Shown here in pieces: positions 38,243 to 55,172 of a DNA stretch of 64,000 bases (within the stretch, counting starts at the first letter, position 1; each line of letters begins with the position of its first letter). Position numbers and translations under genes: made by a program. The DNA is from Sphingobacterium spiritivorum ATCC 33861 (lineage in GTDB: Bacteria > Bacteroidota > Bacteroidia > Sphingobacteriales > Sphingobacteriaceae): contig NZ_GL379770.1 in the NCBI RefSeq assembly GCF_000143765.1, positions 1,452,903-1,516,902 of the forward strand, given 5' to 3'. The notes beneath the pieces are model-generated. The model was not told where the DNA came from. It saw nothing but the letters and a program-made list of their open reading frames with translations, and did no database searches.

Positions 38243-39136
38243 TCACTTGTGTGTTTTGTCCTTGTAAAATGATTTGTATTCATCTATTATTAAATCTCTA
38301 AATGCTGATAATGCCGGATGCTTACTTTCTTTGTCAAAAGCCAATACTGTTTCTGTGTATACAGGCGCTGCCGCAAGAGGGCTAAAGCGGATCTGCAGAT
38401 GCCGGGCCTGATGTTGCACAGATTGCGGCACCAGAGCTGCCGCCAGTCCGCTTGATACGAGTTCTAAAATGGATTGCATTGTATTGCATTCATGCAGGAC
38501 ATGCGGATCAAAACCCAGGTAATGGCAGTAACTTACAAATTGCCGGTAATACTCAGGTGCATACTCTTTACTATACGAGACATAAGCTAATTCACTTAGC
38601 TTACCGGAAGTTGTATTAAAATCAGGAGTTGTTGCCAGACAGAAGGATTCTTTTAATAATGTACGGGTACTCAGCTGATCTGACAGGATTGGTGTGCGTA
38701 CAATTCCCAAATCAAGTTTACCATTTTCTAATGCTGTGAGTTGTTTCTGAGTGGACGTTTCATACAGGCATACATGGAGATATGGATAGCGCTCCTTCAC
38801 CATTTTGAGCAAACGCGCCAATAATGCTTTAGGAGTAGAGCTGATGTATCCTAATCTGAATGTTCCGGATACAGCATCCTGTATCTGTCTGGCCTTGATT
38901 TTGGCATTATCCAAAAGACGTAGAATATCCTGGGTTTCCTTCAGAAAGTATGCTCCTGCCGGAGTCAGGTTTACACGTTTATTGTTACGCTCAAACAGTA
39001 CAACTCCCAGTTCCTCTTCCAGATCTTTGATTTGCCTGCTCAGCGGAGGTTGGGATATAAACAATCTTTCTGCAGCCTTTCCAAAATGAAGTTCTTCTGC
39101 TAAAATAGCGAAATAATGAAGATGTCTTAATTCCAT
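38243..39136 (-). CDS. LysR-family transcriptional regulator
   Basis: 297 residues. N-terminal winged helix MELRHLHYFAILAEELHFGK with AAERLFISQPPLSRQIKDLE, then a periplasmic-binding-protein-like effector domain from about 90 (GTFRLGYISSTPKALLARLL). The family normally controls a divergent gene: here a methyltransferase gene starts 89 bp away on the other strand, with an inverted repeat between them. The MBL-fold gene downstream could also belong to the unit. The effector is unknown. Confidence 0.95.
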   Translation of the reverse strand: MELRHLHYFAILAEELHFGKAAERLFISQPPLSRQIKDLEEELGVVLFERNNKRVNLTPAGAYFLKETQDILRLLDNAKIKARQIQDAVSGTFRLGYISSTPKALLARLLKMVKERYPYLHVCLYETSTQKQLTALENGKLDLGIVRTPILSDQLSTRTLLKESFCLATTPDFNTTSGKLSELAYVSYSKEYAPEYYRQFVSYCHYLGFDPHVLHECNTMQSILELVSSGLAAALVPQSVQHQARHLQIRFSPLAAAPVYTETVLAFDKESKHPALSAFRDLIIDEYKSFYKDKTHK

Positions 39137-39158
39137 GATACGTTAAAGGTATTGATTG

Positions 39159-39205
39159 TTGATAAAATTAGTATTTTTAAGGTATTATCAATGTGTTTAT
39201 TTTTG
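39159..39205 (+). promoter_or_regulatory. Divergent LysR control region and methyltransferase promoter
   Basis: Inverted repeat TTGATAA (39159-39165) / TTATCAA (39185-39191) with 19 bp between, ending seven bases before a TATTTTTG -7 element (39198-39205). The site would cover the -33 region of the methyltransferase promoter and fits a LysR operator. Confidence 0.5.
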
Positions 39206-39225
39206 AAATATAAATCAGCGATGGT

Positions 39226-39939
39226 ATGGAACACAAATCAACATTAAGAGAGATAGAAGAACGTTTTGATCAGGACGTTACCCGGTTTTCGAATCTGGAT
39301 ACGGGACAGCAGACCACTTTGGATGCGCTGTATAATATGGAATTGATTACAGATGGTATTGCAGCGAGTTATGCACAACTCGGAGATGTGCTGGATGTAG
39401 GATGCGGGGCAGGTAATTATCCGGTCAAGTTGTTGTCAAAAGTCAGGAACCCTAATATAACCTTAGTCGATCTCAGTCAACCTATGCTGGATAAGGCTGT
39501 AGAACGTATACAACCGCTTACATCAGGAAGGGTGGATGCCATCAAGGCTGACTTTCAGACTCTGGAATTTCCTGCGGGGAGTTTCGATGTCATTGTGGCC
39601 ACGGCGGTTTTGCATCACTTAAGAACAGATGCCGACTGGGAATCCGCATTTGCAAAATTTTATCAATGGCTTCGTCCGGGAGGTAGCATCTGGATTTTTG
39701 ATCTGCTTATCCAGCAGGAAGCAGGTATACAGCAATTGATCTATAAAGAGCGTTATGGAGCCTATTTGAAAGGGCTTAAAGATGAAGCGTATCGTGACCA
39801 TGTGTTTGCGTATATTGAAAAAGAAGATACTCCGCAGACTCTGGTTTATCAGCTGGATCTGCTACGTCTGGCAGGGTTCAAATCTGTAGATGTACTGCAC
39901 AAAAATCTTTGTTTTGCTTCCTTCGTGGCATTCAGATAA
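39226..39939 (+). CDS. Class I SAM-dependent methyltransferase
   Basis: 237 residues. Motif I VLDVGCGAGNYPVKLL (about 62-77), motif II LVDLSQP, motif IV FPAGSFDVIVATAVLHHLRT (about 110-129), and post-motif LRPGGSIWIFDLL. This matches small-molecule methyltransferases of the UbiE/Tam type. It is divergent from a LysR gene and probably controlled by it. The substrate is unknown. A hairpin lies directly after the stop codon. Confidence 0.92.
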   Translation: MEHKSTLREIEERFDQDVTRFSNLDTGQQTTLDALYNMELITDGIAASYAQLGDVLDVGCGAGNYPVKLLSKVRNPNITLVDLSQPMLDKAVERIQPLTSGRVDAIKADFQTLEFPAGSFDVIVATAVLHHLRTDADWESAFAKFYQWLRPGGSIWIFDLLIQQEAGIQQLIYKERYGAYLKGLKDEAYRDHVFAYIEKEDTPQTLVYQLDLLRLAGFKSVDVLHKNLCFASFVAFR

Positions 39940-39958
39940 ACTGTCATATTAGCATTGC

Positions 39959-39998
39959 AGGTGATGCCGGTTCGCTATTATGGCGTCACCTTTCTTTT
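39959..39998. terminator. Terminator-like hairpin between convergent genes
   Basis: AGGTGATGCC / GGCGTCACCT, 10-bp stem with one mismatch and a 13-base loop, followed by a T-rich tail. It overlaps the last codons of the minus-strand lipoprotein gene. Confidence 0.6.
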
Positions 39999-40652
39999 GT
40001 CTTTTTTGATATACTTGATTGTATTTCCATTGATTTGAAAATAGTCTGTTTCTACCCATTTCCAACTTTTTCCTTCGCGCATATTGTGACCGCTTACTAT
40101 AAAGTTCACGGTTAATTTGTCACCTTCTTTCTTAAATGATATTTCGTCAAATGTATTTTGTATTGTTGCTCCATCCGGAATAGTCGGGCAGCCCTGGAGT
40201 TCTTCCAGTACAACTTTATCGTCTTTGAACCACTTTTTGAGAAACCCTATATGCTGTTCAGAACACTGATATCCGAGCTGAAGAGCTGTAAGTATCTTAC
40301 ATTTCAGATTGCTACGATCATCTTTATAGGGGCCGTCCCACTGGCATTCATTTCCTATAAAAGTCGCTACGTAACCTATTGCCGCACGTTCGGAATCCGA
40401 AAGATTTTTTGCAAGATCCTCATCGATCCTGATCATATTGAAGGTGTCTTTTAATTCATCATCATACTGATCTTCCCGCCAAAGAAATTTCTGTTCGGCT
40501 GTTTGTTCAGGCTCATCTTTTACGACGGGAGCCTGTAAAGAATCCTTTGCTATATTTGTGGTATCTGAATGTATGTTTGTCTTATCCTCTACCGGACGTG
40601 CATTACATGCAAGCAGGCTTAGGGAGAATAGCAGATAATATATATTTTTCAT
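39978..40652 (-). CDS. Lipoprotein, function unknown
   Basis: 224 residues. Signal MKNIYYLLFSLSLLAC with lipobox LLAC. After a low-complexity linker (about 20-50, rich in T, D, K and P) a compact domain follows with several cysteines (IGNECQWDGPYK, LKCKILTALQLGYQCSEQHI, ELQGCPTIPD), which may form disulphides. The end KYIKKDKRKVTP is basic. No family is recognised. It follows the nitronate monooxygenase gene by 12 bp, so the two may share a message, although a role in common is not evident. Confidence 0.7.
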   Translation of the reverse strand: MKNIYYLLFSLSLLACNARPVEDKTNIHSDTTNIAKDSLQAPVVKDEPEQTAEQKFLWREDQYDDELKDTFNMIRIDEDLAKNLSDSERAAIGYVATFIGNECQWDGPYKDDRSNLKCKILTALQLGYQCSEQHIGFLKKWFKDDKVVLEELQGCPTIPDGATIQNTFDEISFKKEGDKLTVNFIVSGHNMREGKSWKWVETDYFQINGNTIKYIKKDKRKVTP

Positions 40653-40664
40653 AGGTCTATGGAT

Positions 40665-41732
40665 TTATGTATCCTGAGATTCGACTTCATGGATCAGATT
40701 ACGTAGTATCTCTGCTGTAGAGGCAGTGCTGAAAGGATAAGGCGACTGACCTACCCATATACTGACAAAGTCTGGATTCTGATTCGTTTTTGATGCTAAC
40801 CGCAAAGGCGCGGTCAGCTTATTCTGATAGGGGTATGGAAGTATATTTCCGGATGCCTCTGCTTCCTTAGAAAAAAGGTTGCGGATTCCCCGGGCATATC
40901 TTCCTGTAAAGCTGTTGGTCAGTACTACATCTTTGCTTTTCAGCTGCTGTAACAGCTCTTTTTCAAAAGGCTTTAATATACTTTCTTTAGCTGTCAGCAA
41001 CAGACTTCCGACCTGAAATCCACAAGCTCCTAATGTATGAACTGCGCGAAGACTACGGGCATTATAGATCCCTCCTGCATAGATGACAGGAACGCGCACA
41101 TGCTCCAGTACCTGACTTAATAAAGAAAATCCTCCTACCAGAGGTAGAGAATCGTCTATAAAACTTCCTCGATGTCCGCCTGCTTCTATACCTTGTACAC
41201 AGATAATATCTATTCCTGAGCGCTCAAGCGCTAGAGCTTCATCCAGACTGGTACAGGTACCGATAAGAATGCTGCCGTTTTGCTTGAACAGGGATATGAC
41301 GGCAGCATCCGGATTTCCGAAAGTAAAACTTACAATGGGACATTTCTCTTCCAGAATAGCTGCTATCTGTTGATGATAGCTGTGTAGTTGCAACTGTTCC
41401 AGACTTGGGAGTTCAGCCTTCAAATTGTGTTTTTGAGCCAGATCCTGTATAAAAGACCGCGCGGTATTATATTTTGAAATGAGCTGATCGGTCACGGGTG
41501 GGATAGCGTGAGCAAAGAAATTGACTGCAAAGGGTTCAGAAGTTAAAGCTCTCGTCTGACGAATAGCTGCTGAACATTGTTCTGCTGTAAGATCTCCAAG
41601 CGCCAGCGAACCCAGGCATCCTGCTGCAGAAGCTGCGGCTACCATCTCAGGGCTGGTTACCCCTAACATAGGAGCCTGAACAATGGGATGAATTATTCCT
41701 AACAATTCGGTAATCTCATTTTTCCATTTCAT
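40665..41732 (-). CDS. Nitronate monooxygenase family protein
   Basis: 355 residues, FMN-binding TIM barrel. Seen: [20 protein letters not shown] at the N-terminus, FAVNFFAH, VCVQGIEAGGHRGSF (the catalytic-His region GxEAGGHRG, about 178-192), VIYAGGIYNARSL and GACGFQVGSLLL. These enzymes oxidise alkyl nitronates such as propionate 3-nitronate, a detoxification role. All expected landmarks are present. The gene is alone except for a small lipoprotein gene 12 bp behind. Confidence 0.92.
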   Translation of the reverse strand: MKWKNEITELLGIIHPIVQAPMLGVTSPEMVAAASAAGCLGSLALGDLTAEQCSAAIRQTRALTSEPFAVNFFAHAIPPVTDQLISKYNTARSFIQDLAQKHNLKAELPSLEQLQLHSYHQQIAAILEEKCPIVSFTFGNPDAAVISLFKQNGSILIGTCTSLDEALALERSGIDIICVQGIEAGGHRGSFIDDSLPLVGGFSLLSQVLEHVRVPVIYAGGIYNARSLRAVHTLGACGFQVGSLLLTAKESILKPFEKELLQQLKSKDVVLTNSFTGRYARGIRNLFSKEAEASGNILPYPYQNKLTAPLRLASKTNQNPDFVSIWVGQSPYPFSTASTAEILRNLIHEVESQDT

Positions 41733-42206
41733 ATTTCTAAAAATACTAAGAATAGTTTGGGTTCAGTTATGATTTTTAGAAATCATGTAATAAGTGTTTT
41801 TTAAGCTTATTACCATTTACCATTGTTTATACGACGAATAAAATGAGGGCTCTGAATATAATCTTTACTTTGCGACTTCTTTTCTTAAAAATGTACCGCC
41901 TTCTAAGGATACAAATGAATCAGTTATGTAAATTTTTATCTACAATTAATTTGTTTTACATGTAGATCTGCATCTACACGATATAGCTGTATTATTGTTG
42001 TGACAGTGTTTTTGGCGTTTGCTCGGGTTTAATATTATTTCCTGTGGGTAAAAATAAACTAAGATAGCTTTATATTTGCGTTATAACTTTTAATACTCTG
42101 ATTATTATCTATTGTGTTTCTGAATACACTTAGAAGTTATACAGTTGATTTGGCACTAACGAACGAAAATCAAAAAGAATTATTTATTTAAGATAAGTTG
42201 AGGGAT
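41733..42206. other. 474-bp AT-rich intergenic region
   Basis: No gene is seen. It holds the inverted repeat TGTAGAT-N4-ATCTACA (41961-41978) and a TATATTTG -7-like element (42071-42078), about 130 bp before the next start. This may be the promoter of the following gene, with a long leader. Confidence 0.4.
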
Positions 42207-42734
42207 ATGAAGTATTCTTTACTGAACAAACAGGATGTCGTAAGAAAGATTGTTTCGGGTGAATTGTTATTAAAGGAGGCGATGGTTGAATATAATATCA
42301 AATCGGAAAGAACCATCATAAGGTGGCTGGATGAATATCAACGAAAACAGCAAAGAGAAAAGGAAAAGGAAATGAGTTCGACGAAAGATTCTATAATCTA
42401 TGCAGAACTTTCTTGTCGTGTATTGCCTTCAAAATTACTGGAGAATTTTGAACTAATACGAATAGTGGAAAAAGAAAAGGCCCTATTCTTTTATTTAGAA
42501 GAATATGAAAAAGCACCGCGTGGTTTTGAAAAAGATTTATTGATACCTAAAGGTTTTTTAGATTCTATAATTATTCAGGATTTCCCGATTCGTGGTCAAA
42601 AATCATTTTTATGTCTGAAAAGAAGAAAATGGATTATTGACGGACTTGATAAAATGGTCTACAGTAAATGGGACGATTTTACAACATTAGTAAGAGTTAC
42701 AAATGAATTTGGTGAATATATGAAGAGTGGATAG
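42207..42734 (+). CDS. HTH protein with ISAon1-transposase-N-terminal-like domain
   Basis: 175 residues from the ATG at 42207. Residues about 5-43 form a transposase-style helix-turn-helix (NKQDVVRKIVSGELLLKEAM then VEYNIKSERTIIRWLDEYQR), followed by a charged coiled linker. The rest resembles the small N-terminal ORF of ISAon1 elements: LLENFELIRI, FFYLEE, IIIQDFPIRGQKSFLCLKRR, WDDF and a closing VTNEFGEYMK. No catalytic ORF follows and no terminal repeats are seen. I infer a domesticated transposase part, perhaps now a DNA-binding regulator. Confidence 0.6.
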   Translation: MKYSLLNKQDVVRKIVSGELLLKEAMVEYNIKSERTIIRWLDEYQRKQQREKEKEMSSTKDSIIYAELSCRVLPSKLLENFELIRIVEKEKALFFYLEEYEKAPRGFEKDLLIPKGFLDSIIIQDFPIRGQKSFLCLKRRKWIIDGLDKMVYSKWDDFTTLVRVTNEFGEYMKSG

Positions 42735-42835
42735 TGTTTACGGTTTGAACAGCTTTATATCAGGAAAGTAATACGAGTTGTTTCAGATAGTTTGGAGAAA
42801 TTCTCAATAATAAATTAAAAGATTTAAATGCTAAA

Positions 42836-43768
42836 ATGAAGAATACGTATTTATCAGGTATTGGATTAATCATTTTCTTATTGGTCGTCTTTGATTCTTG
42901 CAATAATGGTCATACAAGGAAACAGGAAGAAAAGCTGGATACTATCGATAGTATGAATACAAACGCTGTCTCTTCTGTAAGAAAGTTAGCTATAGGAAAT
43001 TTTTGGGATGATTTTGATTTTAATGATGAAGAATTTTACAAGCGTGATGGTGAGCAGGCTATTGCTGATTTTATAGGTCTTTTTCCATCTTCTTCACCTG
43101 AAGAAATTCAAAAAGCTGTATTCAGAATGCTAAGTAAGGCAGAAAGTAATCCACAGGCATTTGCTTTTTTTCAGGGTCTGTTTAAAAAATATTTATATGA
43201 TCCGAATTCTCCTTTGCGTAATGATATGTATTACGAACCCGTAATCGGTTATTTGATACATTCAGATAAGGTTTCTGCTATTGAAAAGAATACATATGAG
43301 CAATTATTGAAGACAGTCAAAAAAAATAAAGTAGGGACTGCGGCGACCTCATTTTCTGTTGCGTTACAATCCGGTAGAGAGGTTCGGTTGGAAGAAATTG
43401 ATGCTCCGTTTCTACTACTGATTTTTTATGAACCTGATTGCAACAGTTGTAAGAGCATCATTGAAAAAATGAAGAATATTCCGGAACTGAATGAATTGAT
43501 TGACAATAAGAAACTACTAAAGATACTGGCTGTATATGCTGTAGGCAATGAAGAGATATGGAAAGATTATTTTCCGTATATGCCGGGTAACTGGATTAAC
43601 GCAATAGATAAAAACAAACATATTATTACTCGTAATCTGTATGACCTGAAGGCTTCTCCCACTATGTATTTATTGGATCAACGTAAGCATGTCATTTTGA
43701 AGGACAGCGATTTGGGGCATGTAATGTATTTTCTTACAAATAATAAAGGTTTAACCAGTGTAATGTGA
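42836..43768 (+). CDS. DUF5106 and thioredoxin-like lipoprotein
   Basis: 310 residues. Signal with a possible lipobox (LVVFDSC, Cys22). A DUF5106-like helical domain covers about 55-165 (FWDDFDFNDEEFYKRDGEQA, then FFQGLFKKYLYDPNSPLRND), and a thioredoxin-like fold follows with the CNSC active site (Cys202, Cys205) in FYEPDCNSCKSIIEKM. Similar two-domain proteins of Bacteroidota act in periplasmic redox work. It lies before a WecA-type transferase gene (39 bp), though a shared function is not clear. Confidence 0.85.
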   Translation: MKNTYLSGIGLIIFLLVVFDSCNNGHTRKQEEKLDTIDSMNTNAVSSVRKLAIGNFWDDFDFNDEEFYKRDGEQAIADFIGLFPSSSPEEIQKAVFRMLSKAESNPQAFAFFQGLFKKYLYDPNSPLRNDMYYEPVIGYLIHSDKVSAIEKNTYEQLLKTVKKNKVGTAATSFSVALQSGREVRLEEIDAPFLLLIFYEPDCNSCKSIIEKMKNIPELNELIDNKKLLKILAVYAVGNEEIWKDYFPYMPGNWINAIDKNKHIITRNLYDLKASPTMYLLDQRKHVILKDSDLGHVMYFLTNNKGLTSVM

Positions 43769-43807
43769 GTGTGAATAAAGTATTCTGAAATTATAAAAAA
43801 TGACTAG

Positions 43808-45034
43808 ATGGAAGTTTTAATAGTATTTGTAATTCCTTTTGTTTTAGCCGTGCTATTGAGTAAGGTGATGATTCCTTACATTATGCTTGTTACATACAGG
43901 AAGAGATTGTTTGATCCGGTAGATCCGCGCAAACATCATCAACGTATTATACCTCGATTGGGTGGGGTGGCTTTTGCTCCTATACAATGCTGTGTACTTG
44001 TCATTACTTTAGTGGTGCTTTACAAAATGGGGCCATATTCACTGGATTTGAATATTGATGTAAAACCCTGGATTATAGTGCCGATGCTGATGATGCTCGT
44101 CTGCGGTCTGGTGATTCTTTTTCTGGTAGGAATAGCGGATGACCTTATCGGAATGGATTACAAATGGAAATTTACGGCCCAATTACTTGTCGCTTCGCTT
44201 TTACCTATATCGGGTTTGTGGATCAACGATATGTATGGTATTCTTTTTATCACATCCTTATCGCCATGGGTAGGCATACCACTGACCATGTTTGCGGTGG
44301 TTCTTATTATTAATGCTGTCAATCTGATGGATGGTCTGGATGGTCTTTGTTCAGGCATAGTAGCTATAGGTGCGGTTGTGTTGGGAGCTATGTTTATTTT
44401 TTACGGTGCCTGGTTGCACGCGATGTTTGCTTTTATAACCGCAGGTGTATTACTTCCGTTTTTTTATTTCAATGTGTTTGGTATTGCACACCGCCGCCGG
44501 CAGATATTTATGGGGGATACGGGGAGCCTCACACTAGGATATTCCATTGCTTTTCTTGCTATTAGTTTTGCTATGAATAATGCTGATATTAAGCCATTTT
44601 CAGAAGGAGCTATTGTTGCCGCTTTTTCTACTTTAATTGTACCTGTGTTTGATGTGGCCCGGGTGATGTTCATCCGTTGGAGAATGGGAAAATCATTGTT
44701 TAAGCCAGATCGTAACCATCTTCATCATAAATTGTTGCAGGTAGGGATGTCGCACCGTCAGGCTATGCTGACGATATTAGGTATGGCGTTGTTTTTTTGC
44801 CTGATTAATGGATTAGCAGTTCATTTTATCAGTAATAACATTGTGGTGCTGGCAGACATTGTATTATGGATATGTTTTCAGTACGCTTTTGATAGAATCG
44901 GAAAAATGAGATCAAGCAAATTGATAAAGGATAAAGTGAAGGATAATACAATAGTTCTTTCAGATGAAAATAAAACAAGGAATGAGAGTTTATACATGAA
45001 TGCTGATGAGTCACTTGGTGCATTTTCAGAATAG
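43808..45034 (+). CDS. WecA/TagO-type undecaprenyl-phosphate sugar-1-phosphate transferase
   Basis: 408 residues with about 11 membrane helices. Family motifs: GIADDLIGMDYKWKFTAQLL (catalytic Asp pair), NLMDGLDGLCSG, the MGDTGSLTLGYSIAF loop, and the cytoplasmic RNHLHHKLLQVGMSHRQA loop. It moves a sugar-1-phosphate, probably GlcNAc or a relative, to undecaprenyl phosphate and so starts a surface glycan. The next gene is a truncated sugar epimerase 24 bp on, as at the beginning of polysaccharide gene clusters; the rest of such a cluster is missing here. Confidence 0.93.
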   Translation: MEVLIVFVIPFVLAVLLSKVMIPYIMLVTYRKRLFDPVDPRKHHQRIIPRLGGVAFAPIQCCVLVITLVVLYKMGPYSLDLNIDVKPWIIVPMLMMLVCGLVILFLVGIADDLIGMDYKWKFTAQLLVASLLPISGLWINDMYGILFITSLSPWVGIPLTMFAVVLIINAVNLMDGLDGLCSGIVAIGAVVLGAMFIFYGAWLHAMFAFITAGVLLPFFYFNVFGIAHRRRQIFMGDTGSLTLGYSIAFLAISFAMNNADIKPFSEGAIVAAFSTLIVPVFDVARVMFIRWRMGKSLFKPDRNHLHHKLLQVGMSHRQAMLTILGMALFFCLINGLAVHFISNNIVVLADIVLWICFQYAFDRIGKMRSSKLIKDKVKDNTIVLSDENKTRNESLYMNADESLGAFSE

Positions 45035-45058
45035 AAATAGAAATTAAAAGATCTGCTG

Positions 45059-45829
45059 ATGAAAATAGTGATAATAGGAGGTTCCGGTTTTGTAGGAACA
45101 CAATTGATCGATCTTTTATTAAAAACTACAAATTACCAAATTGTAAATGTAGATAAGAATGAAAGTAAAAGATTTGCGGATATAACCGTATTAACGAATA
45201 TTCTTGATAAAGAATTATTGTGCAACCGCTTGTCAGGATCTGATATAGTGATTTTATTGGCTGCTGAACATCGGGATGATGTAACTCCCACATCCCTTTA
45301 TTACGATGTAAATGTGCAGGGGATGAAAAATACGTTGCAGGCTATGAAGACTAATGGGATAAAGCGTATCATTTTTACCAGTTCGGTAGCTATATATGGC
45401 CTGAATAAAGCTAATCCTGATGAATCTTTTTCTGCAGATCCTTTCAATCATTACGGGAAGAGCAAGTGGCAGGCAGAGCAGGTCCTTCAGGAATGGTATA
45501 AATCGCATTCGGACTGGAACATAAATATTGTACGGCCTACTGTTATTTTCGGAGAGGGAAACCGGGGTAATGTATATAATCTGTTATATCAGATTGCCAG
45601 TGGCAAATTTATGATGATAGGAAAAGGTAATAATCAAAAGTCTATGTCCTATATCGGAAATATTATTGCTTTTATTAAGTTTGTACCGGTACATCCGCAG
45701 CTTCATTATAAGAGTAAGCATACCATTTATAAGAGCCACCCTTTACGACATCTATTTTGGCTGATTCTGCCTGTGCCCCTGTCGCGCTGGCTGTTGCCTG
45801 CACAGATCCTACCACTGTACCTGTCGTAG
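45059..45829 (+). pseudogene. NAD-dependent sugar epimerase, 3'-truncated
   Basis: The first 208 residues are a normal extended SDR epimerase: GGSGFVG (8-14), the ILLAAEHRDD strand, TSSVAIYG, the catalytic YGKSK (132-136), and RPTVIFG. After AFIKF (ending at 45682) the frame runs into antisense sequence of a fimbrillin gene (VPVHPQLHYKSKHTIY...), giving 48 foreign residues before a stop. About 100 C-terminal residues, part of the substrate pocket, are lost. It should be inactive or altered. It likely worked with the WecA-type transferase encoded before it. Confidence 0.85.
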
Positions 45830-46196
45830 CATTCACTACGACTACTCTGTACTTATACCCGTCTGTCATATTGGCCGCACGTTGCTTACTGTTAGATGGT
45901 GCTGTCTGAGCTTTGATAGGGCCGGATGTAACGGATACTTCAGCACTGATATTTCCAAGCTGCAACAGCTGGCTTTCGCTGTCTGTATTAGTTTCGGGTA
46001 ATGATGCCTGATATTTTGACGGAGTACCTTCGGATGCTTCTTCAATACCATTTATTGAAAAGGCTAACTGAGCCACCTGATCCGGTGAAACCTGTTTTTC
46101 TACTTCTTTTTTAGAACAACTACTTAAAATCAGCAGGCTACATAAGAAGAGTAGAACTCGTGTATAGGTTTTTATTTTATTATTCTTAGTGTACAT
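45675..46196 (-). pseudogene. Fimbrillin-type lipoprotein gene, 3'-truncated copy
   Basis: 173 residues. Lipoprotein signal (LLILSSC, Cys27) and the first third of a fimbrillin family domain: NISAEVSVTSGPIKAQT, SKQRAANMTDGYKYRVVVVN, AKIDVVKGGSYKWYAYSYNE. It matches the complete copy at 48163-49725 closely up to AADVPV and then stops after two odd residues, where the DNA changes to the opposite-facing epimerase gene. About 350 C-terminal residues are missing. It is the third gene of the second cassette copy and may be a silent donor or just debris. Confidence 0.88.
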
Positions 46197-46220
46197 AACT
46201 TGTATTAATGATTGATAATA

Positions 46221-46406
46221 TTAAAATGTTAAATCTCTGCTTTCTGTGTCTGTAGTCCAGTCCTCTACCTTCGGATTTGCTGAATTGGTACCATCTCCTC
46301 CCGGTACCAACCTTGCAGATGAGGCTGCTATACCTTGCTCCAGCTCTATGATATTGCTAGTAATAGCAGGAGAGATGTAGTCTGTTTTATTATTTTTATT
46401 CATCAT
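46221..46406 (-). CDS. 61-residue conserved peptide, cassette copy 2
   Basis: 61 residues (a second ATG directly follows the first). Pattern: basic N-terminus MMNKNNK, YISPAI, a short strand, IAASSARLVPGG, then a polar tail NSANPKVEDWTTD ending DLTF. There is no signal peptide. The copy at 49757 differs in 11 positions that I count, mostly in the tail. Small peptides with a Y-x-x-P-x-I start are common beside fimbrillin genes of Bacteroidota; their role is unknown. It lies between the OmpA-like and fimbrillin genes with gaps of 24 and 36 bp. Confidence 0.75.
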   Translation of the reverse strand: MMNKNNKTDYISPAITSNIIELEQGIAASSARLVPGGDGTNSANPKVEDWTTDTESRDLTF

Positions 46407-46442
46407 GTTATAATTTTTATATAGTTTTTAAGTGGATATTAA

Positions 46443-47627
46443 TTATTCTGCAAATGCAATCACTGCACGGCTTAGTTTAGGATCATTATAATACATATTG
46501 TCTACACCTCCGGCAGCTACGGTGGCCAGTTGTCTTGCCGGTACAGCGAATTCGTTGACCAGTATGTTTTTTACGGCCTCAGCACGCGCCATACTCAGGC
46601 GTTGGTTGATTTCAGATGTTCCTGTTCCTTTATCTGCATATCCGGTGATCCGGTATACGACTTGCTGGTCTCCTTCCTTGATTACTTTTGCAAAGAATCC
46701 CAGATTTACACGGGTTTCATTAGAGATCTCACTACTGCCGATTTTGAAAGTGACCAGTATAGGTGCTGCCAGTATATTTTTATTCACGATGACGTTGGTC
46801 ATGGATTTGTTGCCCGCTTCTTCCAGTTGTTTACTTAGGGCATCATTGTTGGCCGCCAATTCATTTACTCTACGGCGCAGAGCATTGAGCTCTTCTTCAT
46901 CGTAGCTGATGACAGTTGTCTTACTTCTGTCCCATCCTCGTTTTTTGAATTTATAGGTCAATCCGATCAGCGCACTGAGATTTCCTTCCTCTTTACGTCC
47001 TCCGACTTCTCCGTCAAAGCGATCGTTGACCATACTACCTCTGATATCCAATGTCAGATCCAGTGCTTCAGCAAGTCTGAATGTATTGTAGAAACCCAGA
47101 TTCGCACTTACTTCCCGTTGTTTGGGTGCATCATTGGTGACCATCCACCCAGCTCCCAGATACGGACTTATGGTGTAAATGCGATCGGGATTATATCCGC
47201 TAAACAGATTGGAAAGATTGAATAGCATATCTCCGTAGACATGATAGTAGTTAAACTTTTGTTTATCCAGCCATTTGGAAGCATCGTATACTTCTCCTGT
47301 AGAATGGCTCCCGTTTTGTGTCAGTCCTTTGATCTGATATCCTCCGGCTCCGATACGTAAGCCTAATCCGGGAGAAAACCATTTTCCAAGATGCAGGCCA
47401 AAGTGAGGCGTCAGATTCTCAGATAACGGAGCCTGTTTGTTGTGATCCCCGAAATAAAGCTGTGTCCCTGCGCCTGCGCCCAGAAACCAGTTGCTCCAGA
47501 AAGTATTCGTGATTACTTTGTATTTGTTGTTATCTACAACAACAGTTGTATCTTTTCGGATTGTTTGCTGACTATACCCAGTCAGAGAAATGCATAATGC
47601 AATAAAAAGTAAACTTATTATTCTCAT
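46443..47627 (-). CDS. OmpA-family outer-membrane protein, cassette copy 2
   Basis: 394 residues. Signal peptide about 1-19; an eight-strand-like barrel about 30-235 (NTFWSNWFLGAGAGTQLYFG, HFGLHLGKWFSPGLGLRIGA); a short coiled coil (EEELNALRRRVNELAANND); and an OmpA-like peptidoglycan-binding domain about 290-394 with ITGYADKGTG (Asp) and LSMARAEAVKNIL (Arg). It should anchor the outer membrane to peptidoglycan and may hold the fimbrial lipoprotein encoded downstream. I count 18 differences from the copy at 49979-51163. Confidence 0.92.
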   Translation of the reverse strand: MRIISLLFIALCISLTGYSQQTIRKDTTVVVDNNKYKVITNTFWSNWFLGAGAGTQLYFGDHNKQAPLSENLTPHFGLHLGKWFSPGLGLRIGAGGYQIKGLTQNGSHSTGEVYDASKWLDKQKFNYYHVYGDMLFNLSNLFSGYNPDRIYTISPYLGAGWMVTNDAPKQREVSANLGFYNTFRLAEALDLTLDIRGSMVNDRFDGEVGGRKEEGNLSALIGLTYKFKKRGWDRSKTTVISYDEEELNALRRRVNELAANNDALSKQLEEAGNKSMTNVIVNKNILAAPILVTFKIGSSEISNETRVNLGFFAKVIKEGDQQVVYRITGYADKGTGTSEINQRLSMARAEAVKNILVNEFAVPARQLATVAAGGVDNMYYNDPKLSRAVIAFAE

Positions 47628-48162
47628 ATATTTAATATTATTATGTTTAAAGAAGTTGAAAAAATCTATTTTTTACATTATGCCTGTTGTATCAGACATA
47701 TTTAGTTAGTGTGTTGTGATAGGACAAAAATATGATTAGTGAGTTAAACTCGTAGAGGTGCTGTCCGTGATTTTTCATAGTCAAATCCGGAAAATGTTGT
47801 TTTAGAACGTTTAAAAAGAGGTAGTGTGGATGTATCTCTACAATTTTAACCTATATAATGAGGCTGTTCGTTGATAGTTTTCGGATGCAAATTATGATTT
47901 TGGGAGGGAATGGGTTGAAAAAGAGTTGTTTAATGTAGTTTAGAAGTATGTATGTTAACTGATAGATAGCGCATAAAGTCTGGGATTTACAGAGCCGCAT
48001 CATTTAACAGATATCTGTTCGGTTAATTCTTTTATATTATGAAACTAAGGTTTATCCTTTGGCATCAGTTGAGATCTTCATTTAAACAAGCAGATGCTGA
48101 TTTCCATATTGAGAAAATCAGCACCCTTTGTTTTTTACAGTGTATGTAAGTTATCAGTACCG
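47628..48162. other. 535-bp intergenic region between cassette copies
   Basis: No gene is seen. On the minus strand a TATTTTTG -7 element (47732 to 47725) lies about 98 bp before the OmpA-like gene of copy 2. A weak hairpin GCTGATTT / AAATCAGC near 48095-48122 follows the complete fimbrillin gene and may end its transcript, but it lacks a T run. Confidence 0.4.
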
Positions 48163-49725
48163 CTATGTTGTTATATCTCTTACACAACGGATATTTTCAT
48201 AATCATTTCTGTTCCAGAAATTATATAGTGTTGCATCTGATATGTTATCACTCACTTCGAAGCCATAAAATTGATATCCGTTACTGTTTCGGTCTGAAGT
48301 CCAGTAATTGCCATCTCCGCCCGGGTAATATTGAAACGAATTCCTTCCATCCATATTAAACTGCACCCAAACATTGTTATTTCCTTTGAAACGTACGTAT
48401 CCACCGTTATTAGTTTTATCTACAACCTGCCTGTTCACTCCTGTTATACTTATTAACTGATTAAAATCAGCTCGTGTAGGCATACGCCAGGTATTGACGG
48501 GTAGTACTTTTGCACATGCATCAGCATACGCTCCGTTATTAGAATAATCTGTGTTGGGAAGTGTAGCGCCCCATGCCCAAAAATCACTTCTGTACCACGA
48601 ATTGAAGGGTCTTGGCGTAGTATCATCAGGTCTTATAAGGTATTGTCCGCCCTGATAGTAGAGATTACCTGTTGCCCAAAGCAGATTTCCTGTTATGCCA
48701 CCACTTGGTTGTATACGTATATTCGTAATTATTTCCTTTCCTATAGCGGGTTTGATGCTATTAAAGTTGACCGTTGTGGATGTGGTTATCAGATCTGTAG
48801 TACCCACGCGCAATTGGTTTATATCTACAATAAAAGGATTGACCGCTGTAGTGCCCATCGTGTAGAATGAGGCTTGCCTGACACTGCCTGTTGCTGTTCC
48901 TGCGACCGGGAAATCTGCAAAGGGGATAGTACCTGAAGTAGTATGAGCAGCACCAGGAGCCCATGCTACTGTACCCGCCAGGACATTCAGAGAAAATGTA
49001 CCTGAGGTAAAATAATTATTGCTGCCTAACGTAGCAGTTAATGCAGTAATTGCTTCATTTCTCAGGCTGGCATCTAGACGTACAGTTACCTTTGCCAATG
49101 CATGTTTGAAGGTAATAGGAATCTGCTTGTCCTGTTGACCGGCACCAGTGCCTGCCGTGACTGTACCCTGTGCATACAGCAGATCCTTATCATAGGATGG
49201 TGTAAAGACCGGATTTACCTCATCGGATAGTACCGGCACATCTGCAGCTTCGTTATAGGAGTAGGCGTACCAGTAGTAAGTGCCCCCTTTTACGACGTCT
49301 ATTTTAGCGGTTTCAACCTGTGCTGATCCATCTGTTTTTGCTGTTGCCTGTACAGCACCTACCAGATCTCCGTTAGCATCCAGTACTACTACTCTGTATT
49401 TGTATCCATCGGTCATATTCGCAGCACGTTGTTTACTGTTGAAGGATTCTGTTTGAGTTGCGATCGGTCCGGATGTAACAGATACTTCAGCACTAAAATT
49501 ACCGAGTTGTAACAACTGACTTTCACTGCCGGCATTCTGACTCGACAATGCTGCTGTGGCTTTTGAAGGATTTGTATTCCGGACTTCATCGATACCGGTT
49601 ACTGTAAACGACAACTGGTTAGCTACATCAGATGTAACATCGTTTTTGGAGCAACCGCTTAAGATAATCAGAAAGCAAAGGTAGAACAGTCCAAATGACA
49701 CTGGTTTATTATTATGTATTTTCAT
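48163..49725 (-). CDS. Fimbrillin-family lipoprotein with C-terminal FISUMP-like domain, complete copy
   Basis: 520 residues. Lipoprotein signal with LILSGC (Cys25). The N-terminal fimbrillin part (about 35-345) has NFSAEVSVTSGPIATQT, DGYKYRVVVLDANGDLVGAV and ITFKHALAKVTVRLD, the HALAK stretch being typical of Mfa/FimA-like proteins. The C-terminal part (about 347-518) has LPVNTWRMPTRADFNQLISI, NYWTSDRN, QFYGFEVSD and YENIRCVRD, the pattern of FISUMP domains. This suggests a pilus-tip or surface adhesin. It is the third gene of an OmpA / peptide / fimbrillin cassette. Confidence 0.85.
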   Translation of the reverse strand: MKIHNNKPVSFGLFYLCFLIILSGCSKNDVTSDVANQLSFTVTGIDEVRNTNPSKATAALSSQNAGSESQLLQLGNFSAEVSVTSGPIATQTESFNSKQRAANMTDGYKYRVVVLDANGDLVGAVQATAKTDGSAQVETAKIDVVKGGTYYWYAYSYNEAADVPVLSDEVNPVFTPSYDKDLLYAQGTVTAGTGAGQQDKQIPITFKHALAKVTVRLDASLRNEAITALTATLGSNNYFTSGTFSLNVLAGTVAWAPGAAHTTSGTIPFADFPVAGTATGSVRQASFYTMGTTAVNPFIVDINQLRVGTTDLITTSTTVNFNSIKPAIGKEIITNIRIQPSGGITGNLLWATGNLYYQGGQYLIRPDDTTPRPFNSWYRSDFWAWGATLPNTDYSNNGAYADACAKVLPVNTWRMPTRADFNQLISITGVNRQVVDKTNNGGYVRFKGNNNVWVQFNMDGRNSFQYYPGGDGNYWTSDRNSNGYQFYGFEVSDNISDATLYNFWNRNDYENIRCVRDITT

Positions 49726-49756: not shown

Positions 49757-49942
49757 TTAAAAAGTTAGATCTTTATCTATTTTCTCAGTAGTCCAGTCCT
49801 CTACCTGCGGATTTGCTGAATTGGTACCTGTTCCTCCCGGTACCAACCTTGCAGATGAGGCCGCGATACTCTGCTCCAGATCTATAGTATTGCTAATAAT
49901 AGCAGGAGAGATGTAGTCTGTTTTATTATTTTTATTCATCAT
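49757..49942 (-). CDS. 61-residue conserved peptide, cassette copy 1
   Basis: 61 residues with the same design as the copy at 46221: YISPAI, then DLEQSIAASSARLVPGG, a polar stretch NSANPQVEDWTTEK and end DLTF. The tail (about 53-58) is the most changed part between copies, while the IAASSARLVPGG core is unchanged. No signal, no known domain. It lies 31 bp before the complete fimbrillin gene and 36 bp after the OmpA-like gene, so it is translated within the operon. It could be a minor surface subunit, a chaperone-like factor or a peptide precursor. Confidence 0.75.
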   Translation of the reverse strand: MMNKNNKTDYISPAIISNTIDLEQSIAASSARLVPGGTGTNSANPQVEDWTTEKIDKDLTF

Positions 49943-49978: not shown

Positions 49979-51163
49979 TTATTCTGCAAAAGCGATTACA
50001 GCACGGCTTAGTTTAGGATCATTATAATACATATTGTCTACACCTCCGGCAGCTACGGTGGCCAGTTGTCTTGCCGGTACAGCGAATTCGTTGACCAGTA
50101 TGTTTTTTACGGCCTCAGCACGCGCCATACTCAGACGCTGGTTGATCTCCGGTGTTCCTGTTCCTTTATCGGCATATCCTGTGATCCGGTATACGACTTG
50201 CTGGTCTCCTTCCCTGATTACTTTTGCAAAGAATCCCAGATTGACACGGGTCTCATTAGAGACCTCACTATTGCCGATTTTGAAAGTGACCAGTATAGGT
50301 GCTGCCAGTAAATTTTTATTCACGATAACGTTGGTCATGGATTTGTTGCCCGCTTCTTCCAGTTGTTTACTTAGAGCATCATTGTTGGCCGCTAGTTCAT
50401 TTACTCTACGGCGCAGAGCATTGAGCTCTTCTTCATCGTAGCTGATGACAGTTGTCTTACTTCTGTCCCATCCGCGTTTTTTGAATTTGTAGGTCAGTCC
50501 GATCAGTGCACTCAGTGCTCCTTCCTCTTTACGCCCGCCTGTTTCTCCGTCAAAGCGGTCGTTGACCATACTTCCGCGAATATCCAGCGTGAGATCTAAT
50601 GCCTCTGCAAGTCCGAACGTATTATATATACCCAGATTAGCACTTACTTCACGTTGTTTGGGTGCATCATTAGTGACCATCCATCCGACGCCCAGATACG
50701 GACTTATGTTGTAAATGCGATCGGGATTATATCCGCTAAACAGATTGGAAAGGTTGAATAGCATATCTCCGTAGACATGATAGTAGTTAAACTTTTGTTT
50801 ATCCAGCCATTTGGAAGCATCGTATACTTCTCCTGTAGAATGGCTCCCGTTTTGTGTCAGTCCTTTGATCTGATATCCTCCGGCTCCGATACGTAAGCCT
50901 AATCCGGGAGAAAACCATTTTCCAAGATGCAGGCCAAAGTGAGGCGTCAGATTCTCAGATAAAGGAGCCTGTTTGTTGTGATCCCCGAAATAAAGCTGTG
51001 CACCTGCTCCGGCTCCCAGAAACCAGTTGCTCCAGAAGGTATTGGTAATGACCTTGTACTTGCTGTTGTCTGTGACGACAGTTGTATCTTTTCGGATACT
51101 TTGCTGAGCAGATCCCGTCACGGAAATGCATAATGCAATAAAAAGTAAACTGATGATTCTCAT
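49979..51163 (-). CDS. OmpA-family outer-membrane protein, cassette copy 1
   Basis: 394 residues, same architecture as the copy at 46443: signal peptide, barrel to about 235, coiled coil, then the OmpA-like peptidoglycan-binding domain with GYADKGTGTPEINQRLSMAR. I count 18 residue differences, six of them clustered in the first 35 residues. It is the first gene of the complete cassette and its promoter should lie in the 517-bp gap before the GH27 gene. A shared signal-to-surface role with the peptide and fimbrillin is inferred from order only. Confidence 0.92.
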   Translation of the reverse strand: MRIISLLFIALCISVTGSAQQSIRKDTTVVTDNSKYKVITNTFWSNWFLGAGAGAQLYFGDHNKQAPLSENLTPHFGLHLGKWFSPGLGLRIGAGGYQIKGLTQNGSHSTGEVYDASKWLDKQKFNYYHVYGDMLFNLSNLFSGYNPDRIYNISPYLGVGWMVTNDAPKQREVSANLGIYNTFGLAEALDLTLDIRGSMVNDRFDGETGGRKEEGALSALIGLTYKFKKRGWDRSKTTVISYDEEELNALRRRVNELAANNDALSKQLEEAGNKSMTNVIVNKNLLAAPILVTFKIGNSEVSNETRVNLGFFAKVIREGDQQVVYRITGYADKGTGTPEINQRLSMARAEAVKNILVNEFAVPARQLATVAAGGVDNMYYNDPKLSRAVIAFAE

Positions 51164-52874: not shown

Positions 52875-53642
52875 ATGGCGAATATACAAAAGCTTATTGG
52901 AATAGGAACTACATTATTTATTGTTATCTGTTTAGGATCATTGTACTATTCCCTGGAAGTTTTTTATTATAGCGACTTTGGCTGTGGCTGTAGTTCAAAT
53001 TGCAGGGCCTATTATCCTGTTTTTACATCCAGATTTATAGGCTATATTTTTATCATTTGTTCAGCAGCTTTATTTATTGCTGGTATTTGGAGGATAAGGG
53101 GACTTTCGAGAGTATGGATAATTCCAGCAATGTTAATTTTCGGAGTTGCGTCCTATGGTAATGGATATATGGTTTTTAATAAAGGTAGTTGTGGTTTATC
53201 CTTAAATCGTACAATTTTTTTTATAAATCAGACCAAACTCGGCGATTTTGCTAAAGCAGATGCGGAAAGTATAAATATTGACAGTCTAAATGAGGGAAAA
53301 CTAAAAGGAAAATTATTAGGCTATGCACTAAACGGGAGGGAACTGACAGCCTTCAGGATTGATGCAGAGCCCTTAAAAATAAATACTGGTTTTCTGTTTT
53401 GGTATGTTCCTGACAGTATAATTATAAATGATATTTCTTACGGATTGAGTACATTAAGGAATATTGAAGCCGAAAATGTAAAAGGGCATTATGAATTTAT
53501 TGGTGGGCAGGGAATGGTTGAAAAGGACTTTTTGAACGAATTTGTGCTGACACAGAGAGAATTATCAGGCATTTTGAAGAACAAAAGAATAATAAATTCC
53601 AAAGACGGTACGACAAGGTTTTTATTTGAAATGGATGAATAG
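52875..53642 (+). CDS. Membrane protein, function unknown
   Basis: 255 residues. Four membrane helices in the first 110 residues, with a cysteine-rich external loop FGCGCSSNCRAYYPVF (about 36-51) that could bind metal or form disulphides. The C-terminal half is soluble with beta strands (KGKLLGYALNGRELTAFRID, IIINDISYGLSTLRNIEAEN). No family recognised. It follows the GH27 gene by 27 bp, so it may be its operon partner, but no functional link is visible. Confidence 0.65.
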   Translation: MANIQKLIGIGTTLFIVICLGSLYYSLEVFYYSDFGCGCSSNCRAYYPVFTSRFIGYIFIICSAALFIAGIWRIRGLSRVWIIPAMLIFGVASYGNGYMVFNKGSCGLSLNRTIFFINQTKLGDFAKADAESINIDSLNEGKLKGKLLGYALNGRELTAFRIDAEPLKINTGFLFWYVPDSIIINDISYGLSTLRNIEAENVKGHYEFIGGQGMVEKDFLNEFVLTQRELSGILKNKRIINSKDGTTRFLFEMDE

Positions 53643-53692
53643 ATAAGTATGGTCAAGGGATCAAAACCTTTAAATAAACCTCTAATCATAAG

Positions 53693-53727
53693 AAAAGCAA
53701 CCTAAAGTATATCTTTTAGATTGCTTG
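53693..53727. terminator. Hairpin between convergent genes
   Basis: AGCAACCTAAA / TTTAGATTGCT, 11-bp stem with one mismatch, between the membrane-protein gene and the DsbA-family gene. Confidence 0.55.
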
Positions 53728-53749
53728 ACCTATTATTTGCGTATTCTAT

Positions 53750-54481
53750 TTATTCACAATGTCCGTCCGGTGAACAGGAAGGACCGTCACTGACAATAAA
53801 AGGTGATATCGGATTTTTAGCAGCCCATTCAGCGAATGACTTATTCAATGTATCTGCAAATGCTTGTGTTGGTTGTGCTCCGGAAACAGCATATTTACGG
53901 TCAAAGACAAAGAATGGTACGCCTCTTACACCGATACTCTGTGCTTCCTGTATATCCTGCGTTACTCTGTATGCATATTCATCATTTGATAGTGCCTGTT
54001 CGATATCGTCTTCTGTCAGCCCGATTTCCTGCCCCAATGCGGAGAGTACTTTTCGATCAGCAATATCTTTACCTTCAGTAAAATAGGCTTTAAAAAAGCG
54101 CTCTTCAATTTCATCACCCAAACCTTTAGTCTTTGCAAATTGAATGACCCGATGCGCATTGAAAGAGTTGACGGTGACGACATGGTCAAAATCATAATCC
54201 AAACCCGCATTTTTTGCTGTTTGAGTTACCTGATCTAACATCGCATGTACCTGATTGGCAGGCATACCCTTCCGTTGGACAAGATATTGTATATGATCAA
54301 ATTCTTCTTTTTCAGGCAATGTAGGATCTAACTGAAAACTTTTCCAGATAATCTCTATATTTTCAGAATTAGCAAATTTGGACAATGCGCCTTCAAAATT
54401 ACGTTTCCCGATATAGCAAAACGGACACATGATATCGCTCCATATCTCGACCTGCATTTTACTTGTTTGAATTGTATTCAT
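53750..54481 (-). CDS. DsbA-family oxidoreductase, FrnE-type
   Basis: 243 residues without signal peptide. The active site is WSDIMCPFCYIGKRNFEGAL with Cys19 and Cys22; the helical insert (HIQYLVQRKGMPANQVHAML) and the late IGVRGVPFFVFDRKYAVSGA (cis-Pro loop) define the FrnE branch of DsbA-like thioredoxin folds. The C-terminal tail CSPDGHCE has two further cysteines. These proteins are cytoplasmic and help in disulphide exchange, for example in polyketide or stress pathways. The gene stands alone. Confidence 0.93.
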   Translation of the reverse strand: MNTIQTSKMQVEIWSDIMCPFCYIGKRNFEGALSKFANSENIEIIWKSFQLDPTLPEKEEFDHIQYLVQRKGMPANQVHAMLDQVTQTAKNAGLDYDFDHVVTVNSFNAHRVIQFAKTKGLGDEIEERFFKAYFTEGKDIADRKVLSALGQEIGLTEDDIEQALSNDEYAYRVTQDIQEAQSIGVRGVPFFVFDRKYAVSGAQPTQAFADTLNKSFAEWAAKNPISPFIVSDGPSCSPDGHCE

Positions 54482-54621
54482 TTTTTTTAGTTCTAAAATA
54501 CCGAGGCAAATTTAACGAATTCAGTAAGGATGTTAGGGTCTTTCAATAGACTTCAAACGGCACTCCTTTGTAATGTTGCAATTACATGATTTGTCCATTA
54601 CAAGCATATGACAAATATGAT

Positions 54622-54984: not shown

Positions 54985-55004
54985 GTATATGCAGCTTTTC
55001 TAAC

Positions 55005-55054: not shown

Positions 55055-55172
55055 CCGGATATTACTGTTCGCCTTCTGCAACTTTGTATCAGTGCTTCGG
55101 AAGTGAATAGTAATCACTTTACAGAATCAGGAAGTTAATTAATTTTTTTTACTTATTCAAAATTTTATTGTT

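What the first reader, a model, noticed from the sequence alone, without database searches (positions are those of the whole stretch)
45059..46196. Two opposite-facing genes truncated at one junction (sugar epimerase and fimbrillin)
The epimerase frame is normal through residue 208 and then reads antisense fimbrillin sequence from about 45683. On the other strand the fimbrillin copy matches its complete paralogue up to AADVPV and then reads antisense epimerase sequence. Both genes lose their 3' parts at the same point, so a deletion or inversion joined unrelated loci. A WecA-type gene plus an epimerase usually open a polysaccharide cluster, so such a cluster may have been deleted here.
Basis: partly seen in the sequence, partly recalled or inferred. 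Interest (0 to 1): 0.72.

Follow-up and report, generated by a model that had tools for sequence, protein, structure and literature searches.

The report
Scar of a deleted sugar-coat cluster
Two bacterial genes that are cut off at exactly the same point mark where this strain has most likely lost about 20,000 bases of DNA that two close relatives still carry, holding genes predicted to build a surface sugar coat; it is a clean but ordinary kind of deletion.

Summary
The epimerase is intact through residue 208 (45682); from 45683 the sequence is antisense fimbrillin, and that fimbrillin is intact through AADVPV. Two complete related genomes, G001 and G072, have the same flanking genes in the same order, with 20,931 and about 20,330 bp between the breakpoints and both genes full-length. 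In G001 the interval holds 17 ORFs, among them a flippase, glycosyltransferases, Gmd, a Wzy-like membrane protein, Wza, Wzc and a PqqD/ABC cassette. Full-length proteins named Sphingobacterium spiritivorum match both stubs at 100% (208 of 208, 171 of 171 residues), so the loss looks recent and strain-level. The fused 256-residue protein is recorded on 7 contigs, the longest 5,136,875 bp, which argues against misassembly. The join shows no microhomology and no flanking repeat; both relatives carry adjacent Ku and LigD, so end joining is the likely sealing step (inferred). Collinear flanks exclude inversion. The epimerase resembles Gnu (59% to E. coli), so the lost glycan was probably GalNAc-primed. 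A second OmpA/fimbrillin pair next door is intact.

The parts
43808..45034 (+). WecA-type initiating sugar-phosphate transferase, complete; left flank of the deletion
   Evidence: PF00953 Glycos_transf_4, 112.7 bits against cut-off 27; same place next to the epimerase in G001 and G072
45059..45682 (+). 5' part (codons 1-208 of 320) of a Gnu-like UndPP-GlcNAc 4-epimerase gene
   Evidence: identical over 208 residues to complete P0002 and P0003; 61% to an E. coli RefSeq-annotated Gnu over 207 residues
45682..45683 (.). deletion junction; 20,931 bp (G001) or about 20,330 bp (G072, ends extrapolated a few bases beyond the blast blocks) lie here in relatives
   Evidence: base-level comparison; collinear blast blocks on both sides
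45683..45829 (+). 48-codon out-of-family tail and stop of the epimerase frame, read from antisense fimbrillin
   Evidence: translation; matches the antisense of the G001 fimbrillin, residues 209-256
45683..46196 (-). 5' part (codons 1-171 plus one base) of the cluster-linked fimbrillin-like lipoprotein gene
   Evidence: 100% to P0123 residues 1-171; 93.6% to the G001 orthologue
45675..45682 (-). last bases and stop of the fimbrillin stub, read from antisense epimerase
   Evidence: sequence
46221..46406 (-). 61-aa small ORF between OmpA and fimbrillin (ends ...PKVEDWTTDTESRDLTF); a like ORF is in the second window unit, G001 and G072
46443..47627 (-). OmpA-family protein, unit 1; right flank of the deletion
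   Evidence: PF00691, 66.7 bits against cut-off 27.2; same position and orientation in G001 and G072
48163..49725 (-). intact second fimbrillin (unit 2), a divergent paralogue that survives
   Evidence: PF13149 Mfa_like_1, 29.8 bits against cut-off 27; 98% to P0131
49979..51163 (-). OmpA-family protein, unit 2, 95.4% identical in protein to unit 1

Best explanation
The junction at 45682|45683 is most likely the scar of a single deletion of roughly 20-21 kb that removed a predicted surface-polysaccharide gene cluster, together with the last 112 codons of a Gnu-like epimerase gene and about the last two thirds of a fimbrillin gene, and that was likely sealed by end joining. Shown: both stubs, the exact junction, collinear flanks, the full-length genes and the intervening cluster in two complete relatives, full-length proteins named S. 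spiritivorum that match each stub at 100%, no microhomology at the join as judged from the relatives, and Ku plus LigD in both relatives. Inferred: that the window's strain is S. spiritivorum and that its direct ancestor carried a cluster like theirs; that a double-strand break with end loss was closed by Ku/LigD; that the Gnu and fimbrillin stubs are non-functional; that the strain no longer makes this glycan; that the surviving WecA can at most make UndPP-GlcNAc for other pathways; and that the intact OmpA/fimbrillin unit next door keeps that surface function. Why the deletion rose is unknown: relaxed selection in culture, or escape from a phage or predator that uses the coat, are both plausible.
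For: G001 and G072 have the same left flank up to the epimerase and the same right flank from the fimbrillin, in the same orientations, with 20,931 and about 20,330 bp between the breakpoints. The G001 interval encodes a Wzx-type flippase (PF01943), glycosyltransferases, Gmd, Wza (PF02563) and Wzc (TIGR01007 above cut-off). Both stubs are 100% identical to the start of complete proteins named S. spiritivorum. The fused 256-aa protein stands on 7 contigs, the longest 5,136,875 bp. 0 of 93 genus genomes carry the junction. Shared runs near the two breakpoints are no longer than in random pairs, direct or inverted. Ku and LigD lie side by side in 2 of 2 relatives searched. tblastn of the 17 interval proteins finds nothing in the window at E 1e-3.
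Against: The window's own assembly is not held, so a move of the cluster elsewhere in that genome, and Ku/LigD in that strain, could not be checked. No reads were available. The 7 contigs may be copies of one assembly. The ancestor's DNA at the breakpoints is known only from relatives, so 'no microhomology' is an inference from them; an AAAC shared by the two sides lies 4 bases off the join. In Mycobacterium smegmatis loss of ku/ligD raised large deletions (passages of PMC3519483), so Ku/LigD as a cause of deletion is not a given.
Confidence: 0.92

Rival explanations
1. Assembly error: two unlinked ends were joined by the assembler and the strain still has the cluster.
For: Own assembly and reads are not held. 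The interval in the relatives contains short dispersed repeats, which can confuse assemblers.
Against: The fused protein is on 7 contigs, the longest 5,136,875 bp, though these may be copies of one assembly. The two breakpoint surroundings share no repeat beyond chance. Flanks keep the order seen in relatives.
Confidence: 0.04
2. Inversion or reversible DNA switch between the epimerase and the fimbrillin.
For: Opposite-facing genes truncated at one point; a 10-base palindrome GTACCGGTAC lies at 45683-45692, its only exact copy in the window.
Against: An inversion would join the 5' part of one gene to the reversed interval, not 5' part to 5' part; the flanks are collinear with 20 kb missing. 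The palindrome is fimbrillin coding sequence (GTACTGGTAC in G001) and is absent from the epimerase breakpoint. Longest inverted matches between the breakpoint surroundings are 5 bases (within 50) and 9 or 8 bases (within 200) in G001 and G072, within the random range.
Confidence: 0.02
3. Deletion by recombination between repeats or by a mobile element, not by end joining.
For: This is a common route for large bacterial deletions (recalled); an insertion element or repeat could have been lost together with the interval.
Against: No transposase among the 7 neighbouring proteins scanned (one upstream protein has an HTH_28 match below cut-off, and it is also in G001 and G072). Longest direct shared runs are 6 and 5 bases within 50 and 7 and 8 within 200 bases of the breakpoints in G001 and G072, against random means of 6.6, 6.7, 8.9 and 9.2.
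Confidence: 0.15
4. The cluster was excised and reinserted elsewhere in the same chromosome.
For: Cannot be excluded without the own assembly.
Against: No site-like repeat at the scar; none of the interval's 17 proteins is found in the rest of the 64-kb window, which is only a small part of the chromosome.
Confidence: 0.04

Closest known systems
Streptococcus pneumoniae R36A capsule-locus deletion (PMC8515895, passages read)
   Same: 7,505-bp deletion inside a surface-polysaccharide locus that leaves genes truncated at both ends (wzg/cps2A and wzy/cps2H); a laboratory lineage (recalled)
   Different: Other phylum, smaller, within the capsule operon; a 25-bp inverted fragment was left, while here the join is clean and the second partner is a fimbrillin gene on the opposite strand
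Pseudomonas aeruginosa PcyII-10 phage-resistant deletion variants (PMC6467409, passages read)
   Same: Deletions that remove O-antigen genes or galU; the authors found no direct repeat at all of the large ones and cite Shen et al. for large deletions through end joining
   Different: Selected in the laboratory by phage, and others there had repeats or 6-10 bp homology; for the present strain no selection is known
Gnu, UndPP-GlcNAc 4-epimerase, clade D of Cunneen et al. 2013 (PMC3682973, abstract, passages and section 15 read)
   Same: The intact G001 homologue is 59% identical over 316 residues to an E. coli protein annotated with this function between wcaM and galF; it stands beside a WecA-type gene
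   Different: In the window only residues 1-208 of 320 remain, so the gene is a stub; activity was not tested
Wzx/Wzy-dependent polysaccharide clusters with Wza/Wzc export (recalled as a class)
   Same: The interval in G001 has a flippase, glycosyltransferases, a Wzy-like membrane protein, Wza and Wzc
   Different: It also carries an S24-like/PqqD/NTP_transf_5/ABC/HprK-like cassette, and is bounded by an OmpA/fimbrillin unit

Membership tests
Gnu epimerase (clade D) | sequence kinship with Gnu | tested here: met
   59% over 316 residues to an E. coli RefSeq-annotated Gnu; no clade tree was built, so Gne/GnaB were not formally excluded
Gnu epimerase (clade D) | works with a WecA-type initiating transferase | tested here: met
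   adjacent PF00953 gene, its homologue in the same place in G001 and G072; adjacency only, joint work not tested
Gnu epimerase (clade D) | complete protein with C-terminal part | tested here: not met
   the window copy ends its kinship at residue 208 of 320
Gnu epimerase (clade D) | activity on UndPP-GlcNAc | not testable with these tools
   needs biochemistry
Wzx/Wzy-dependent glycan cluster (the lost interval, as seen in G001) | Wzx flippase | tested here: met
   PF01943, 31.9 bits against cut-off 28.2; 12 hydrophobic segments
Wzx/Wzy-dependent glycan cluster (the lost interval, as seen in G001) | Wzy polymerase | tested here: inconclusive
   424-aa protein with 9 hydrophobic segments but no Pfam match at 1e-5
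Wzx/Wzy-dependent glycan cluster (the lost interval, as seen in G001) | Wza and Wzc export/length-control pair | tested here: met
   PF02563, 67.6 bits against 28; TIGR01007, 133.2 bits against 108.05
Fimbrillin (PF13149 Mfa_like_1) | domain match over cut-off | tested here: inconclusive
   met by the intact paralogue (29.8 against 27); not by the 173-aa stub nor by the full-length G001 orthologue at E 0.01, which is linked to the paralogue by 53% identity
Ku/LigD end-joined deletion | no or minimal microhomology at the join | tested here: met
   0 bases against the G001 sequences on both sides; ancestor's own DNA not seen
Ku/LigD end-joined deletion | Ku and LigD present | tested here: inconclusive
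   met in 2 of 2 relatives searched; the own genome is not held
Invertible (phase-variable) surface locus | inverted repeats at both ends and reciprocal junction | tested here: not met
   inverted matches between breakpoints within the random range; flanks show loss, not inversion; reciprocal junction could not be sought in the own genome
Mobile-element deletion | insertion sequence or direct repeat at the scar | tested here: not met
   no repeat beyond chance, no transposase among 7 neighbouring proteins scanned

The most novel reading that the evidence does not exclude
A one-step coat switch: by one Ku/LigD-sealed deletion the strain dropped both its GalNAc-primed polysaccharide and the fimbrillin tied to that locus, and now presents the divergent second OmpA/fimbrillin unit on a bare surface. 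In this reading the glycan cluster and the OmpA/fimbrillin unit are one functional surface module, and the duplicated unit made its loss affordable.
Probability: 0.12. Interest if true: 0.5.

Novelty: new member of a known kind. Interest (0 to 1): 0.3.

Why it matters
A sequenced Sphingobacterium strain, whose fused protein also sits on a chromosome-sized record, lacks at this locus a glycan cluster that close kin carry, so surface, phage or biofilm work on that strain may not represent the species. It also gives a base-exact example of a large deletion without repeats or microhomology in a group whose members carry Ku and LigD. As a phenomenon it is ordinary.

Tried and rejected
Inversion or a switch: rejected because both flanks are collinear. 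The 10-base palindrome at the join was considered as a recombination site and dropped: it is fimbrillin coding sequence and is not present at the other breakpoint. Dispersed hairpin repeats of about 45 bases, inside the G001 and G072 intervals and at 59718 and 60012 in the window, were considered as deletion mediators and dropped, because none lies at either breakpoint. Rfam on 37000-62000 gave 0 matches at gathering thresholds. The plasmid search gave only remote epimerase matches in 3 records. A scan of viral contigs for the junction gave 0. The search with the 173-aa stub gave one protein, P0121, a 141-aa fimbrillin that ends at a different place and is not this junction; the window's own 173-aa protein was not listed there. 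The 80 loci were listed but not analysed further. The solved-structure search found only GalE-like and other SDR proteins (24 sequences at E 1e-10) and was not used further. Paper searches: 'Sphingobacterium + capsular polysaccharide + fimbrillin' 0 papers; 'Sphingobacterium spiritivorum + genome' 87 and '+ polysaccharide' 34, of which I saw only the listings of 25 and 15; no paper on this deletion was seen in those listings. Further listings seen; four papers were opened in part.

Full report
What was checked. The two frames exist as described: 45059-45829 (+, 256 aa) and 45675-46196 (-, 173 aa). Pfam finds an epimerase in the first (PF01370, residues 3-212), nothing above a cut-off in the 173-aa stub, WecA-type PF00953 in 43808-45034, OmpA in 46443-47627, and fimbrillin-like PF13149 in the intact paralogue 48163-49725.

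The junction. The own assembly is not held; the nearest held genome is G001, which shares 30% of the window's sampled 31-letter words. Compared with it, the window matches the epimerase side up to 45682 and the fimbrillin side from 45683 at base level; blast lets the two blocks overlap by three bases (45683-45685). Window ...AAGTTT|GTACCGGTAC... stands against epimerase ...CAATTT|CTAATAG and fimbrillin TTTGGTA|GTACTGGTAC in G001. The base before the join is not shared by the fimbrillin, and the first base after it is not shared by the epimerase; P0002-P0004 have Leu there, and a Leu codon cannot begin with G. So microhomology is 0 bases as far as relatives tell. An AAAC present on both sides lies 4 bases off the join and would need an extra small loss. 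Longest direct shared runs within 200 bases of the breakpoints are 7 (G001) and 8 (G072), random means 8.9 and 9.2; within 50 bases 6 and 5, random means 6.6 and 6.7. Inverted runs are 9 and 8 within 200 bases and 5 and 5 within 50, also within the random range.

What relatives have there. G001 has the epimerase full-length and the fimbrillin full-length, with 20,931 bp between the two breakpoints. G072 is a 5,135,302-bp chromosome whose epimerase and fimbrillin are letter for letter P0011 and P0125, both named S. spiritivorum; it has about 20,330 bp there (20,329 if the ends are extrapolated a few bases beyond the blast blocks, which stop at window 45675 and restart at 45690). Flanks are collinear on both sides: window 38265-45685 on G001 at 90.5%, 45683-47968 at 88.7%, 53678-59612 at 91.1%. 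Order and orientation are those of both relatives, which leaves deletion and excludes inversion.

What lies in the interval. In G001, 17 complete ORFs on one strand: Wzx-type flippase; three GT2-type and three GT1-type glycosyltransferases; a 276-aa protein without a Pfam match; GDP-mannose 4,6-dehydratase; a 424-aa protein with 9 hydrophobic segments (Wzy-like, not proved); an S24-like peptidase (below cut-off); a 91-aa PqqD-like protein (domain shown on the G072 copy, 71% identical); NTP_transf_5; an ABC exporter; a protein weakly like HprK-related kinases (below cut-off); Wza and Wzc. G072 keeps the ends and the export and peptide cassette at 57-84% protein identity, while several genes in the middle differ, as is usual for such loci (recalled). 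G001 and G072 each have one further Wza-type match elsewhere, so a strain without this cluster may still export another polysaccharide.

Within the named species. Of 7,998 scored proteins (120 listed), the best match to the fused frame is itself, P0001, 256 aa, on 7 contigs, the longest 5,136,875 bp. Next come complete 320-aa proteins named S. spiritivorum: P0002 (9 member sequences, 3 contigs) and P0003 (1 member, 2 contigs), identical over 208 of 208 residues, and P0004 (1 member, 6 contigs), 207 of 208. For the fimbrillin, a search with the G001 orthologue gave 11 proteins at E 1e-3 among 7,994 scored; P0123 (546 aa, S. spiritivorum, 1 contig) is identical to the stub over 171 residues. For four pairs (P0002/P0127, P0007/P0129, P0008/P0132, P0011/P0125) the longest contigs of epimerase and fimbrillin have the same length (498,554; 155,346; 237,865; 5,135,302), so they probably lie on one contig; only the last was seen directly, in G072. 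No single strain was shown to carry both P0002 or P0003 and P0123. That the window belongs to S. spiritivorum is inferred from these names and identities. The 7 contigs of P0001 may include copies of one assembly.

How widespread. A 271-base query over the junction matched 47 of 93 genus genomes, always on one side of the join: epimerase-side matches end at query base 130 or earlier, fimbrillin-side matches begin at 124 or later, the join being 123|124. The 30-base junction with up to 3 mismatches is in 0 of 93. The set holds one genome per species, so strains of S. spiritivorum are not counted by it. The full-length G001 epimerase finds a match at E 1e-60 in 49 of 93; 46 of the 49 cover at least residues 1-317 (three of these rows carry a stop flag with open frames of 317-318, probably the natural end), while G040 is split in two frames, G060 lacks the start and G100 the end. 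The cluster-linked fimbrillin at 68% or more is in 2 of 93 (G001, G072); the other 45 genomes with a match at E 1e-15 have identities up to 38%.

The epimerase. E. coli records with related DNA (1,305 of 5,426 genomes, 60-80% identity, none over 80% of the query; 12 listed) name it SDR oxidoreductase (8 of 12) or N-acetyl-alpha-D-glucosaminyl-diphospho-ditrans,octacis-undecaprenol 4-epimerase, that is Gnu (4 of 12, one of them marked as pseudogene). The G001 protein is 59% identical over 316 residues to an intact one of these lying between wcaM and galF; PMC3682973 places gnu upstream of the O-antigen cluster at a galF-linked locus. NCBIfam gives the G001 protein no match above a cut-off among the 25 families listed. 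With WecA next to it, the lost glycan was probably started with GalNAc (inference). The stub lacks residues 209-320 and is predicted dead.

How it arose. No repeat beyond chance at the scar and no transposase among 7 neighbouring proteins scanned. Ku (PF02735) and LigD (TIGR02776, above cut-off) matches lie 228 bases apart in both G001 and G072; in the 14 control genomes each family is over its cut-off in 1. A repeat-free join fits end joining; the paper on P. aeruginosa phage escape, for large deletions without direct repeats, cites Shen et al. on end joining (passages of PMC6467409). Against it, ku/ligD loss raised large deletions in M. smegmatis (passages of PMC3519483). The step stays inferred.

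The second unit. The window has two OmpA/61-aa ORF/fimbrillin units. G001 has one match to the window's second fimbrillin (53%), and G001 and G072 each have one match to the G001 fimbrillin at E 1e-15 and one OmpA gene beside it. The window's OmpA copies are 92.5% identical in DNA with blocks from 82 to 100%, which looks like gene conversion. The second fimbrillin is intact and 98% identical to P0131, named S. spiritivorum. It may have made loss of the first bearable (inference).

Standing. The R36A capsule-locus deletion (7,505 bp, genes truncated at both ends; passages of PMC8515895) is the closest known case. This is a new member of a known kind: well supported, moderate local value, low surprise.

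Noticed in passing
window 59718-59765 and 60012-60059; G001 and G072 intervals between Wzc and fimbrillin; G072 beyond the start of the OmpA gene: Dispersed intergenic repeat of about 45 bases with two hairpins (CTCTCC..GGAGAG and CCCGCAGGG), in arrays spaced about 118-147 bases in G001 and G072 and 294 in the window; REP-like, no Rfam match in the window.
   Followed up: partly
window 46221-46406 and 49757-49942: A 61-aa ORF (62 aa in G072) between OmpA and fimbrillin, strongly conserved in the two window units, G001 and G072 (shared core LEQ.IAASSA.LVPGG.GTNSANP.VEDWTT); no function assigned.
   Followed up: partly
window 46443-47627 and 49979-51163: Two OmpA-family genes with mosaic identity (82-100% in 99-base blocks), suggesting gene conversion between tandem units.
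   Followed up: partly
window 52875-53642: A 255-aa ORF stands where G001 and G072 have a 207/208-aa membrane protein gene (93% alike between them; looks like a CDP-alcohol phosphatidyltransferase, recalled): a second lineage-specific replacement 7 kb from the scar.
   Followed up: no
window 42198-42734: Small protein with a weak HTH_28 match (below cut-off) just upstream of the glycan locus, also present in G001 and G072: possibly a transposase-derived regulator of the locus.
   Followed up: no
G040:C1:2821414-2822269: The Gnu-like epimerase of another Sphingobacterium genome is split into two frames, so loss of this gene may recur in the genus.
   Followed up: no
protein P0121 (contig of 945,180 bases): A close relative's fimbrillin ends after 141 residues in ...ATASATRG, a different truncation of the same gene; may be a frameshift or a sequencing error.
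   Followed up: partly
G001 L113:151-669 to L112:16195-17208: S24-like/PqqD/NTP_transf_5/ABC/HprK-like cassette inside a polysaccharide cluster; the PqqD-like protein (scanned as its G072 copy) is nearest to lasso-peptide chaperones but far below their cut-offs.
   Followed up: no
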